Of a stretch of 64,000 bases of DNA, positions 12,989 to 15,927 are shown piece by piece (the first letter of the stretch is position 1; each line of letters opens with the position of its first letter). The position numbers and the translations under genes are program-made. Origin of the DNA: an uncultured bacterium (lineage in GTDB: Bacteria > Pseudomonadota > Alphaproteobacteria > Rhodospirillales > Rhodospirillaceae); the NCBI GenBank assembly GCA_903888485.1, contig CAISTS010000029.1:62001-126000 (forward strand). The letters are read 5' to 3'. Below the pieces are notes generated by a model, which was not told the DNA's origin, did not search any database, and saw nothing but the letters and a program-made list of their open reading frames with translations.

Positions 12989-13506
12989 GGCGCGTTGCCC
13001 AAGGCGGCATGGAGCACCACGTCGCCGTTCTTGATGCCGAGGCGCTTGGCGGTCCCAGCCGGCACTTCCAGCACGGCGCGCACCAAATCATTTGGTCCGA
13101 CCGGCGCTTCGGAATGCGGCGTCGTGTTCTCGGCGATGTCGGCGATGGTCCCGTTCGCGCGGATGAAAATCATGTCCAGCGGAATGAAAGTGTTGCGCAT
13201 CCAGAAACGCTCGATCTGCGTACGCTCGAAAACGAACAGCATTCCTTTATCCGCATCAAGGTGATCGCGGTGCATGAGGCCGATGTCGCGCTCCGGCTGG
13301 GTATCGGCGAGTTCGACGGTGAACGCGTGGGTGTTGCCGCCGCTTTGAATCGACAAAGGCGACGTGGGCAGCGATTGCGCTTTGGCCGGGTTGAATGGCT
13401 CGAAGGGCCTAATGCCCTGCGCCTCCGATCCGCACGATGCAGTGACCAGCCCCATAAGCAGGGCGCAAACAACCATCAAGCGCCGTGATAGGCCGAGCAT
13501 ATTCAT
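12985..13506 (-). CDS. DUF192 family lipoprotein
   Basis: A 173-residue protein with a lipoprotein signal: hydrophobic core, then VTASC with the lipid-carrying Cys25. The mature part is a DUF192 domain: ERDIGLMHRDHLDADKGMLF, then RFWMRNTFIPLDMIFI and AVLEVPAG, the conserved core of this small beta-barrel family. DUF192 proteins are exported and of unknown biochemical function. Its start overlaps the stop of the Panacea gene by four bases (13503-13506), so the two are translated from one message. Confidence 0.9.
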   Translation of the reverse strand: MNMLGLSRRLMVVCALLMGLVTASCGSEAQGIRPFEPFNPAKAQSLPTSPLSIQSGGNTHAFTVELADTQPERDIGLMHRDHLDADKGMLFVFERTQIERFWMRNTFIPLDMIFIRANGTIADIAENTTPHSEAPVGPNDLVRAVLEVPAGTAKRLGIKNGDVVLHAALGNAP

Positions 13507-14066
13507 TCTACGCGCTTGGGGGTCCAGCGGTGGGCCGTGACCGGCTTGCCGGTGGCGTTGCGCATCACTTTGGGGCGCAGCACCTTGCCCGCCGCTGGCG
13601 CATCGCTGGCGACCATCGGCGTCTGCTTTCGCGTCAGGCCTTGCGTGCCGTAAAAATCCACCATGGCTTCGAAGACGATCTCCGATCCCGGCTCCACGGA
13701 GAAGGCGTCGGCGTAGGGCGGATGACGCTTGATCAATTTCGTCAGGTGATCGGTCGAGTGCGCGCCGAATTGTCGCCAGATGCTGTCGAGGATGTGGCGC
13801 GGCAACTCGTCAACGGGCTTTAACTCTACCGCCGGCCGGCCGCGCGCAAAGGCGCGGAAGATCGTGGGCTCAATGGGGCCGTCTTCGGTAGCAATGAAGG
13901 TCGCGGGCATCAGCTTGGCGCCGCTCTGCAGCACGCCGAAATAGCCCTGCGCGAGGAACATCAGGCGGTGGAGTTTCTGGGGCTGAAGATATTCGCCGTC
14001 GTCCTGCGCGCGATCGAGGAACCAGCACGCCACCTCGAAGCAGGATTCAACAGCCGTCGGGCCCAT
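13503..14066 (-). CDS. Panacea-domain (SocA-like, DUF4065) protein
   Basis: A 187-residue soluble protein with the Panacea core near residues 25-75: LQPQKLHRLMFLAQGYFG followed by an EDGPIEPTIFRAF segment. This corresponds to the K-LQKL-YYAQGW and A--HGPV-P-VY-- pattern of SocA. SocA is a proteolytic adaptor antitoxin in Caulobacter, and Panacea domains act as the neutralising part of many toxin pairs. No obvious toxin lies beside it: the downstream neighbour is a DUF192 lipoprotein and the upstream gene encodes an unknown 136-residue protein. It is therefore either an orphan adaptor or a partner of one of these unknowns. The C-terminal 60 residues are basic and proline-rich. Confidence 0.75.
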   Translation of the reverse strand: MGPTAVESCFEVACWFLDRAQDDGEYLQPQKLHRLMFLAQGYFGVLQSGAKLMPATFIATEDGPIEPTIFRAFARGRPAVELKPVDELPRHILDSIWRQFGAHSTDHLTKLIKRHPPYADAFSVEPGSEIVFEAMVDFYGTQGLTRKQTPMVASDAPAAGKVLRPKVMRNATGKPVTAHRWTPKRVE

Positions 14067-14093
14067 GGCAGCAGATGATCTCAGAAGATGAAC

Positions 14094-14504
14094 TTAGCGG
14101 AGCATACCGATATCGGTGCTGGTTTCGGCAGCACGCATGAGCGCCTGATTGAATTCATAGATGGCGATGTTGCGCTCCGCTTCGACGCCGCCGCGCACCG
14201 GAGTCCGTGCCGAATGGGCGGCCTGGGCCTGCATGATGGTGGTGCCCACCTCGCGCGAGACCAGGACGCCGCCAAAACTGACGACATTATCGAGAAACGG
14301 ACCCGCCGGGCGCCTGCGGCGGCGCGGGGTCGTGTCGAATTCCTCGAAGTCATCATAGCCCCGGGCTTGGTCATGAGCCGGCGGAGCATAGGATCCCGAT
14401 ATCGGATCGACAAACTCACTGAGCGACGCAACGGCATTACGCGGCTGCGATATCCGCACAGCCGGTCCTACTATCCCCGCATTGGCAACCTGAGCGGTGC
14501 TCAT
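14094..14504 (-). CDS. Unrecognised 136-residue protein
   Basis: The frame starts at ATG 14504 and ends at TAA 14094-14096, 27 bases before the Panacea start. I do not recognise the family. The N-terminal half is low-complexity and probably disordered, with a PRRRRRPAG basic cluster; the C-terminal half looks helical (AERNIAIYEFNQALMRAAE). There is no signal peptide or membrane span. A good sigma-70-like promoter lies upstream at 14550-14579. It is probably the first gene of an operon with the Panacea and DUF192 genes. A role as partner of the Panacea protein is possible but not shown. Confidence 0.7.
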   Translation of the reverse strand: MSTAQVANAGIVGPAVRISQPRNAVASLSEFVDPISGSYAPPAHDQARGYDDFEEFDTTPRRRRRPAGPFLDNVVSFGGVLVSREVGTTIMQAQAAHSARTPVRGGVEAERNIAIYEFNQALMRAAETSTDIGMLR

Positions 14505-14549
14505 GGTCGTCGGGTCCTTGCGCGCAAAAGTTTATTGTTCGTTACGCTA

Positions 14550-14579
14550 TTTATATGGCCTGCGTGCCCGCCAAGTCAA
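14550..14579 (-). promoter_or_regulatory. Sigma-70-like promoter for the 136-residue protein operon
   Basis: On the minus strand TTGACT (14579-14574) and TATAAA (14555-14550) are separated by 18 bases, close to consensus. The site is about 45 bases upstream of ATG 14504, inside an AT-rich stretch. Confidence 0.55.
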
Positions 14580-14667
14580 ACGGAAGGACCCCCTTTCGGG
14601 TTCCAAAAAAACACAAAAATCTTTGAAATATCAAAATATTAAGGACTCATTAACCAGTGTGGCGGCG

Positions 14668-14766
14668 CTAACCCTGCAGCGCCAAGGCCAGCAAAGACCA
14701 AAGGTAAAGGGTAAGAAATAAGCCAAGCAGGGCAGATGTTTCCTTGATGAAGCCGGTGGCGCTCAT
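14668..14766 (-). CDS. 32-residue single-span membrane peptide under LexA-box control (SidA-like arrangement)
   Basis: ATG 14766 is followed by 32 codons and TAG 14670-14668. The ribosome site AAAGGGA lies seven bases upstream. The peptide begins MSATGFIKETSALL, with a charged or polar N-terminus, and continues as an unbroken hydrophobic helix of about 20 residues with two tryptophan/tyrosine-type aromatics (LYLWSLLALAL), ending in QG. This is the form of a small inner-membrane peptide. The promoter upstream (TTGACA-N17-TCTTAT) is overlapped by two perfect alphaproteobacterial SOS boxes. Caulobacter SidA, a 29-residue SOS-induced inner-membrane division inhibitor, has the same design. Homology to SidA is not shown by sequence; the functional parallel is inference. 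Confidence 0.65.
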   Translation of the reverse strand: MSATGFIKETSALLGLFLTLYLWSLLALALQG

Positions 14767-14795
14767 GGAGTGGTCCCTTTCATTTCACGCGTTTA

Positions 14796-14810
14796 GTTCG
14801 TCTTTTGTTC
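14796..14810. promoter_or_regulatory. LexA (SOS) box 1, GTTC-N7-GTTC
   Basis: GTTCGTCTTTTGTTC is an exact match to the alphaproteobacterial LexA site, two GTTC half-sites spaced by seven bases. It lies 30-44 bases upstream of the ATG of the 32-residue peptide, just downstream of its predicted transcription start, where bound LexA would block transcription. Confidence 0.7.
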
Positions 14811-14820
14811 TTGTGGGGTT

Positions 14821-14849
14821 ATAAGAACAAATAAAGAACAACCTGTCAA
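14821..14849 (-). promoter_or_regulatory. Promoter of the 32-residue peptide, overlapped by LexA box 2
   Basis: On the minus strand a consensus -35 TTGACA (14849-14844) is followed after 17 bases by TCTTAT (14826-14821) as -10. The spacer is occupied by LexA box 2. This geometry predicts tight repression in undamaged cells. Confidence 0.6.
14825..14839. promoter_or_regulatory. LexA (SOS) box 2, GAAC-N7-GAAC
   Basis: GAACAAATAAAGAAC is the same site in the other orientation (minus strand GTTCTTTATTTGTTC), exact in both half-sites and the 7-base spacer. Its centre is 29 bases from that of box 1. Being between the -35 and -10 of the peptide promoter, it would exclude RNA polymerase. The dusA start lies 66 bases away on the other side. 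Confidence 0.7.
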
Positions 14850-14904
14850 GCGCCTCTCCAAGGGGGTCTTGCGGGCGGGCCCGGGAACGCATAACCCAAG
14901 GTCC

Positions 14905-15927
14905 ATGAATGGAAATTCGAATCCGCATACGGGCGCGCACCGTTTCTCCGTTGCGCCGATGATGGACTGCACGGACCGGCATTGCCGGTATCTGATGCGT
15001 CTGATCACGCGCCGCGCCCTGCTCTACACCGAGATGGTGACGTCGGCGGCCATCGTGCGCGGCGCCGACCCCAAACGCTTCCTGGCCTTAGACCAGAGTG
15101 AACACCCGGTCGCACTGCAGCTGGGGGGCAGCGACCCGGCGCAACTCGCCACCGCCGCCCGCATGGCGGAGGACTTCGGCTACGACGAGGTCAACCTGAA
15201 CGTGGGCTGCCCCAGCGACCGCGTCACGTCTGGGCGCTTCGGCGCCTGCCTGATGGCCGAGCCCCAGTTGGTCGCCGACTGTGTACGCGCTATGCAGGAT
15301 GCCGTGTCGGTGCCGGTGACGGTCAAGACGCGCATCGGCATCGACGACATGGACAGCGAGCAGCACCTCGACGACTTCGTCGGCACGGTCGCGGACGCAG
15401 GCTGCGCTCTGTTCATCATCCATGCCCGCAAAGCCTGGCTGCAGGGGCTTTCTCCGAAGGAGAACCGCGAGATCCCACCGCTGCACTACGACCGCGTCCA
15501 CCGTCTGAAACGCAGGTTCCCCGCGCTGGGTATCGTGCTGAACGGCGGCCTCAAGACGTTGCCCGCGGCGCTGGCCGCTTTGACCGATGCCGATGGCACC
15601 CAGCTCGACGGCGCCATGCTCGGCCGCGCGCCCTATGACTCGCCCTACATGCTGGCGGACGTCGACCGCACCTTCTTCGGCGACCTCGCCGTGCCCCTGC
15701 CCCGCGCGGCCGTCGTGGACGCCTATCTCGACTATGCGATGCCGCTGATCGCCGCCGGGGCCCGGCGGCATCTCGTGCTGCGCCACCTGGTCGGGCTGTT
15801 CCACGGCTGCGCCGGCGCACGCGCCTGGCGCCAGGCGGTGACGCGCATCGGCCAGGAGGGCGGCGATCCGCGATCCCTGGAAACAGTCGCGCAAAGGCTG
15901 GGTGAAAGCCGCGTCCTCGCGGCCTAG
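14905..15927 (+). CDS. dusA: tRNA-dihydrouridine synthase A
   Basis: A 340-residue FMN-dependent reductase that converts uridine to dihydrouridine in the D-loop of tRNA (positions 20/20a). It has the DusA opening RFSVAPMMDCTDRHCRY (residues 13-29), the active-site Cys102 in NVGCPSDRV, the FMN phosphate region GIVLNGG, and LGRAPYDSPYML near residue 250, as in DusA rather than DusB/C. The start at ATG 14905 is preferred over the in-frame GTG at 14869 because the family begins just before HRFSVAP. It lies downstream of the LexA-box region, on the opposite strand from the small membrane peptide. Confidence 0.95.
   Translation: MNGNSNPHTGAHRFSVAPMMDCTDRHCRYLMRLITRRALLYTEMVTSAAIVRGADPKRFLALDQSEHPVALQLGGSDPAQLATAARMAEDFGYDEVNLNVGCPSDRVTSGRFGACLMAEPQLVADCVRAMQDAVSVPVTVKTRIGIDDMDSEQHLDDFVGTVADAGCALFIIHARKAWLQGLSPKENREIPPLHYDRVHRLKRRFPALGIVLNGGLKTLPAALAALTDADGTQLDGAMLGRAPYDSPYMLADVDRTFFGDLAVPLPRAAVVDAYLDYAMPLIAAGARRHLVLRHLVGLFHGCAGARAWRQAVTRIGQEGGDPRSLETVAQRLGESRVLAA

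What the first reader, a model, noticed from the sequence alone, without database searches (positions are those of the whole stretch)
14668..14849. A LexA-controlled 32-residue membrane peptide: candidate SOS division inhibitor
Seen: two exact GTTC-N7-GTTC sites (14796-14810, 14825-14839) overlap a TTGACA-N17-TCTTAT promoter that reads into a 32-codon gene with a good ribosome site. The product is one hydrophobic helix with a short polar head. Known: this 15-base pattern is the alphaproteobacterial LexA box, and Caulobacter SidA is a 29-residue SOS-induced inner-membrane peptide that blocks division through FtsW/FtsN. Inference: the gene is an SOS-induced division inhibitor or related damage-response peptide, too short for ordinary gene callers. 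Having two operators on one tiny gene implies tight repression. dusA diverges from the same region and could also be affected.
Basis: partly seen in the sequence, partly recalled or inferred. Interest (0 to 1): 0.85.

Follow-up and report, generated by a model that had tools for sequence, protein, structure and literature searches.

The report
DNA-damage-switched tiny membrane peptide, SidA-like
A 32-residue membrane peptide that matches no known protein family model is kept, together with its DNA-damage switches, in many related bacteria, and it most likely stops cells dividing while their DNA is repaired, as the Caulobacter peptide SidA does.

Summary
Box count alone means nothing (2 found, 1.89 expected); conservation decides. 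In 46 family genomes with the peptide, 46 of 46 have an exact box within 200 nt upstream and 40 of 46 have one on each strand (shuffled mean 0.27). The frame is under purifying selection (pN<pS in 136 of 136 pairs); 27-residue relatives occur in other families of the order. Exact boxes also precede recA, uvrA/ssb, an imuA-like gene and lexA here. A LexA-controlled single-helix peptide is thus well supported. SidA was recovered from a named Caulobacter genome (NF033228, 70 bits). None of 35 aligned family members matches that model, but profile comparisons link the families weakly, through peptides that sit, like SidA, beside dnaE. Best reading: an SOS-induced inhibitor of the late divisome working like SidA; membership not shown, function untested.

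The parts
14668..14766 (-). 32-codon gene for the membrane peptide MSATGFIKETSALLGLFLTLYLWSLLALALQG (stop included)
   Evidence: match in 18 of 19 same-genus genomes (own included); pN<pS in 136 of 136 pairs of 17 genus loci; AlphaFold2 single helix 3-31, pLDDT 95.1
14774..14780 (-). ribosome binding site AAAGGGA, 7 nt before ATG
   Evidence: sequence; a GGG or GGAG stretch within 18 nt in 21 of 23 family loci (L019 and L020 were framed from a later codon)
14821..14826 (-). -10 hexamer TCTTAT
   Evidence: sequence; same place in relatives by eye
14844..14849 (-). -35 hexamer TTGACA, 17-nt spacer to the -10
   Evidence: TTGAC starts 9-10 nt before box 1 in 23 of 23 family loci
14825..14839 (-). 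LexA box 1, in the spacer and overlapping the -10
   Evidence: exact in 22 of 23 family loci (L013 has GTTG)
14796..14810 (+). LexA box 2, downstream of the -10, 29 bp from box 1 centre to centre
   Evidence: exact in 23 of 23 family loci, spacing 27-31 bp
14905..15927 (+). divergent dusA (tRNA dihydrouridine(20/20a) synthase), neighbour
   Evidence: NF008774, 473 bits; divergent neighbour in 21 of 23 family loci
14094..14504 (-). 136-aa protein of no known family, next gene downstream in the same direction
   Evidence: no Pfam, NCBIfam, PHROGs or PADLOC match; found downstream in 16 of 18 same-genus loci, the other two stretches ending first

Best explanation
An SOS-induced single-pass inner-membrane peptide that delays cell division. 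LexA on two operators around the -10 keeps the promoter off (inferred from sequence and conservation). DNA damage activates RecA, LexA is cleaved, and the 32-residue peptide is made. It inserts as one helix, the short K/E-bearing head probably on the cytoplasmic side, and a conserved set of residues (F6, [KR]8-[ED]9, A12-L13, L16-F17, Y21, W23) most likely docks on a membrane partner in the late divisome, FtsW by analogy with SidA, holding septal wall synthesis inactive until repair is done. Shown here: gene, operators, their joint conservation, a predicted helix, a distant profile resemblance to SidA. Inferred: LexA binding, induction, topology, target and division block.
For: Joint conservation of frame and operators: 46 of 46 genomes with at least one exact box, 40 of 46 with boxes on both strands, shuffles mean 0.27, maximum 4; mean pN 0.16 against pS 0.68. 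In the same genome exact boxes precede recA, lie between uvrA and ssb, and precede an imuA-like gene and lexA. Single helix 3-31. Kept residues suggest a specific partner rather than bulk hydrophobicity: in 45 sequences L13 45, Y21 43, W23 41, A12 40, F17 39, K/R at 8 in 40, E/D at 9 in 44. SidA from named Caulobacter relatives has the same build: 29 aa, RE..AL head, one hydrophobic stretch, LexA boxes. hhalign against SidA: window family 3.9e-4 to 5.8e-4, 27-residue group 4.6e-5 (0 of 400 block shuffles), f34 intermediates 4.5e-6 to 1.3e-5.
Against: No expression, binding or phenotype data. 0 of 35 rows of A2 match the curated SidA model. The direct window-family-to-SidA score is reached by 2 of 150 and 1 of 200 block shuffles. 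Neighbours differ: dusA here, dnaE for SidA. Thirteen family genomes are listed without a match (capped list) though all 13 have LexA, and 4 draft genomes with the peptide (G010, G014, G017, G300) gave no LexA hit: presence of peptide and of LexA do not track each other. Class-wide the profile reaches little: 15 of 385 genomes at E<=0.05, of which only the own genome, three of f81 and two of f34 look real by their boxes. Clustering of kept residues on one helix face is not significant (p 0.056).
Confidence: 0.72

Rival explanations
1. An SOS-induced membrane-active peptide of the TisB/DinQ kind, which disturbs the membrane and slows metabolism instead of binding the divisome.
For: Same size class, single helix and SOS control as E. 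coli DinQ, a toxic single transmembrane peptide (start of abstract of PMC3567139, listed). Sequence alone cannot exclude it.
Against: No charged residue after E9 in the window peptide; strongly kept Y21, W23, A12-L13 and [KR][ED] head; leader of only about 48 nt if transcription starts about 7 nt after the -10, with no Rfam match reaching a gathering score, whereas dinQ has antisense RNAs (same abstract). That TisB is amphipathic and RNA-controlled is recalled.
Confidence: 0.13
2. A small SOS-induced regulator of some other membrane protein (transporter, protease, envelope sensor), not of division.
For: Kept residues suggest a partner but do not name it; many single-helix small proteins act on one membrane partner (general knowledge).
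Against: Of the SOS-induced small membrane peptides named in the listing, SidA, YneA and SosA are division inhibitors (DinQ is not); profile link to SidA.
Confidence: 0.12
3. The boxes serve dusA, and the small frame is a chance open frame or leader.
For: dusA diverges from the same region and is a neighbour in 21 of 23 family loci.
Against: pN<pS in 136 of 136 pairs; peptide and boxes persist in L004 and L007, which have no dusA hit in 1.5 kb upstream, and the peptide in 31 of 31 other-family loci, which have no dusA hit in the 1-3 kb held; TTGAC and box 1 are set out for the peptide's strand in 23 of 23.
Confidence: 0.03

Closest known systems
SidA of Caulobacter (NCBIfam NF033228, cell division inhibitor SidA)
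   Same: LexA boxes upstream, about 30 residues, [KR]E..AL head then one hydrophobic helix
   Different: No match to the curated model; YLWS and ALQ motifs where SidA has FVWMM; 32 against 29 residues; beside dusA, not dnaE; boxes on opposite strands, those of SidA loci mostly on one strand
27-residue peptides in other families of the same order (no name; L081, L083-L086, L090-L124 in part)
   Same: Clear homologs: profile E about 1e-12, 0 of 100 and 0 of 200 block shuffles
   Different: Shorter tail; 9 of 31 have an exact box, 28 of 31 a box with at most one mismatch, often GTTGCTATTTTGTTC
Peptides of family f34 (L133, L138) beside dnaE
   Same: F-x-KDFLAL head, LexA box, one hydrophobic stretch; profile E 2.3e-6 to 2.9e-6, 0 of 200 shuffles
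   Different: Next to dnaE like SidA (2 of 2); different C-terminal half; only two sequences
YneA (Bacillus), SosA (Staphylococcus)
   Same: SOS-induced membrane division inhibitors; YneA acts on FtsW (titles and abstract starts of PMC13396833 and PMC6851548)
   Different: Longer, with extracellular parts (recalled); no sequence relation tested
DidA of Caulobacter
   Same: Damage-induced single-helix division inhibitor (PMC4211646, passages)
   Different: 71 residues, SOS-independent, binds FtsN (passages)

Membership tests
SidA family (NF033228) | match to the curated model (cut-off 35 bits) | tested here: not met
   window peptide no match at E<=1; 0 of 35 rows at E<=10; positive control from Caulobacter 70 bits over 29 of 29 positions
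SidA family (NF033228) | detectable homology by profile-profile comparison | tested here: inconclusive
   hhalign 5.8e-4, probability 29% (30 rows) or 3.9e-4, 36% (28 rows); reached by 0 of 150 and 0 of 200 full shuffles, 2 of 150 and 1 of 200 block shuffles; stronger through 27-mers and f34
SidA family (NF033228) | LexA operator at the promoter | tested here: met
   46 of 46 family genomes; for comparison 27 of 34 readable SidA loci have an exact box within 250 nt
SidA family (NF033228) | single transmembrane helix, about 30 residues | tested here: met
   helix 3-31; best 19-mer hydropathy 2.22 against 2.04 for SidA; membrane location itself not tested
SidA family (NF033228) | gene neighbourhood (dnaE directly downstream; seen here as typical, not a published criterion) | tested here: not met
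   dnaE beside SidA in 35 of 35 loci and beside f34 peptides in 2 of 2; no dnaE hit in L057-L124, which hold window-family and 27-mer loci; the window itself has dusA
SidA family (NF033228) | binds FtsW and blocks division | not testable with these tools
   needs experiment
LexA (SOS) regulon | conserved exact GTTC-N7-GTTC at the promoter, in a genome whose known SOS genes carry it | tested here: met
   a box ends about 53 nt before the lexA match itself; LexA binding not tested
TisB/DinQ-type SOS toxins | antisense RNA or structured-leader control | tested here: inconclusive
   no Rfam match reaching a gathering score in 13900-15400; an undescribed antisense RNA would not be seen

The most novel reading that the evidence does not exclude
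SidA, the dnaE-linked f34 peptides, the 27-residue peptides and this 32-residue peptide are one ancient alphaproteobacterial family of LexA-controlled, single-helix division brakes sharing an F-x-[KR][ED]-x-x-A-L head. The SOS checkpoint peptide known from Caulobacter would then be ancestral to much of the class, and mostly unseen because no family model covers it.
Probability: 0.5. Interest if true: 0.75.

Novelty: new variant of a known kind. Interest (0 to 1): 0.6.

Why it matters
NCBIfam's SidA model does not reach these peptides and no Pfam or NCBIfam model names them. This adds a family of mostly 27-33 residue peptides, found with their operators across one bacterial family and partly across its order, with a residue signature that can be tested against FtsW. 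It offers many natural variants for mapping how one bare helix might stop the division wall-synthesis complex, and shows that operator-guided comparison can expose regulon members about 30 codons long.

Tried and rejected
Motif counting as evidence: rejected, no excess. Promoter/terminator scanner: nothing found, uninformative given its -10 rule. Rfam: one sub-threshold hit to a human lncRNA region (21.3 against 50 bits, E 0.05), dismissed. LexA presence as a co-occurrence test: uninformative, LexA in 56 of 60 genomes, including 13 of 13 listed without the peptide. Family f123 genomes G394 and G503 scanned at 27 box sites for a SidA-like frame: none convincing. G422's order tried as a guess for Caulobacterales: wrong, 3 genomes only. 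Weak class hits without exact boxes (L130-L132, L134-L137, L139-L141) treated as chance, though L141 has a KETLAL stretch; likewise L025 and the second place in G266 (L117). Not fetched: four matched other-family genomes (G096, G115, G208, G225), the second place in G246, and two of the 37 SidA-matching genomes (G716, G723). No match in plasmids for an f81 relative or in phages for the window peptide. Of 72 box sites in the own genome only 30 were fetched; of the stricter ones read, L027, L030 and L031 showed no SOS gene that I recognised by eye.

Full report
OBSERVATION. On the - strand: TTGACA (14849-14844), 17-nt spacer, TCTTAT (14826-14821), then AAAGGGA seven bases before ATG 14766, and 32 codons with the stop ending at 14668. 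Box 1 (14825-14839) overlaps the spacer and the -10; box 2 (14796-14810) lies just downstream. The bare pattern is not rare: 2 in the window against 1.89 expected, and 72 sites in the 3.49-Mb genome against 93 for the reversed control.

IS IT A GENE? A 41-genome search found the peptide in 27 of 41 at E<=1: 18 of 19 of the genus (own included), 5 of 6 others of the family, and 4 of 16 others of the order, these last all weak. Codons 2-31 of 17 of the 18 genus loci (L019 left out) show mean pN 0.16 against pS 0.68, near saturation, with pN<pS in 136 of 136 pairs.

IS IT UNDER LEXA? In the first 23 family loci both boxes are exact in 22 (L013 has GTTG in box 1), 27-31 bp apart, with TTGAC starting 9-10 nt before box 1 in 23 of 23. 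Over all 46 family genomes with a match (41 and 5 more, one place each), 46 have at least one exact box within 200 nt upstream of the match, which begins at codon 1 to 7 or so, and 40 have exact boxes on both strands; upstreams with shuffled letters give a mean of 0.27 and a maximum of 4 genomes with any exact box. In 31 of the 35 other-family genomes (four not fetched), 9 have an exact box and 28 a box with at most one mismatch, against shuffled means of 0.13 and 3.4; many share GTTGCTATTTTGTTC, which may be a variant LexA site or another promoter element. In the window's genome 30 of the 72 sites were fetched; stricter ones lie before recA, between uvrA and ssb, before an imuA-like gene (44.9 bits, below that model's cut-off) and before a radical SAM gene, while three others showed no SOS gene by eye; one further site ends about 53 nt before the lexA match. 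LexA was found in 56 of 60 family genomes: in 13 of 13 listed without the peptide, and not in four drafts that have it (G010, G014, G017, G300). So LexA presence does not explain presence or absence of the peptide.

WHAT IS THE PEPTIDE? AlphaFold2 gives one helix, residues 3-31, mean pLDDT 95.9 with A1 and 95.1 with the cleaned A3. Across 45 of 47 sequences that align without gaps the best kept positions after M1 are L13 (45/45), Y21 (43), W23 (41), A12 (40), F17 (39), L16 (38), with K or R at 8 in 40 and E or D at 9 in 44. Clustering of these on one helix face is suggestive only (p 0.056). No Pfam or NCBIfam family is hit, PHROGs gives only E 0.066, PADLOC nothing.

COMPARISON WITH SIDA. The original SidA paper is not held. 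PMC4211646 (passages) calls SidA a 29-residue SOS-induced inner-membrane protein acting through FtsW. I located Caulobacter genomes by DivK, read all 63 box sites of the pattern used in two of them, and in one found a 29-residue frame starting 64 nt from the start of a box. NCBIfam names it SidA (NF033228, 70 bits over 29 of 29 positions). Of 50 named genomes searched (of 80 at hand), 37 match at E<=1, the weakest doubtful. I read 35 of these 37; 27 of 34 have an exact box within 250 nt (L357 was mis-framed there and left out), and dnaE follows in 35 of 35. SidA and the window peptide share the order of parts: short head with [KR]E..AL, then one hydrophobic helix.

HOW CLOSE? The curated model rejects the window family: 0 of 35 rows at E<=10. 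Profile-profile comparison (28-row clean repeats): window family to 27-mers about 1e-12; to f81 peptides about 1e-12 to 2e-12; to f34 peptides 2.3e-6 to 2.9e-6 (0 of 200 shuffles in each set); f34 to SidA 4.5e-6 to 1.3e-5 depending on which is the query (1 of 150 full, 0 of 150 block shuffles); 27-mers to SidA 4.6e-5 (0 of 400 block); window family to SidA 3.9e-4 to 5.8e-4 (0 of 150 and 0 of 200 full; 2 of 150 and 1 of 200 block). f81 to SidA directly shows nothing (0.021). Single-sequence scores agree: the window-family model gives SidA at most 8.1 bits, while unrelated frames from other loci reach 5.8; the SidA model gives f34 13.5 bits, but an unrelated frame reaches 12.9. The f34 peptides stand next to dnaE as SidA does (2 of 2), which supports SidA-f34 orthology apart from sequence. 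Descent from one ancestor is thus plausible, but each step to SidA is weak, and E-values for such short hydrophobic profiles deserve distrust; the shuffles are the better guide.

HOW WIDE? Class-wide the broader profile matched only 15 of 385 genomes at E<=0.05; by their boxes only the own genome, three of f81 and two of f34 look real. Either the family is limited, or it drifts beyond sequence search.

NEIGHBOURHOOD. The dusA match begins 114-220 nt from the peptide start, divergent, in 21 of 23 family loci, and again in further family loci, but not in the 31 other-family loci nor the SidA loci searched. Whether LexA also touches dusA is open.

MECHANISM. Best-supported: LexA derepression on damage, membrane insertion, docking on the late divisome, pause in constriction. 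The first step is backed by conserved operators; the rest is by analogy with SidA. Rivals are a membrane-disturbing SOS peptide and a regulator of another membrane protein.

NOVELTY. In the searches made (listings with titles and abstract starts; passages of PMC4211646, PMC12700426 and PMC13384398) I saw no description of this family or of SidA relatives in other orders; the library lacks most subscription journals, so this is not proof. I file it as a new variant of a known kind: it most likely works like SOS division-inhibitor peptides, but is not a member of the SidA family as curated.

Noticed in passing
window 14094-14504 (-): 136-aa protein with a run of arginines and no known family, downstream of the peptide in 16 of 18 same-genus loci; role unknown.
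   Followed up: partly
window 13503-14066 (-): 187-aa protein with weak resemblance to SocA/Panacea antitoxins (NF047745, 23.4 bits against a cut-off of 190), found near the peptide in 12 of 18 same-genus loci; no toxin partner looked for.
   Followed up: no
L086, L090, L099, L102, L107, L114, L118, L121, L124 (upstream of the peptide): GTTGCTATTTTGTTC recurs 62 to 124 nt upstream of 27-residue peptides in nine loci, with close variants in others: perhaps a LexA half-site variant.
   Followed up: partly
L036 (own genome C10:62223): Exact box GTTCTTGTTTTGTTC 24 nt before a PA0069-family radical SAM gene (526 bits): candidate SOS gene.
   Followed up: no
L318 (Caulobacter radicis genome G684): A second LexA-box-linked small hydrophobic ORF of 34 residues ending in RRRP, unlike SidA.
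   Followed up: no
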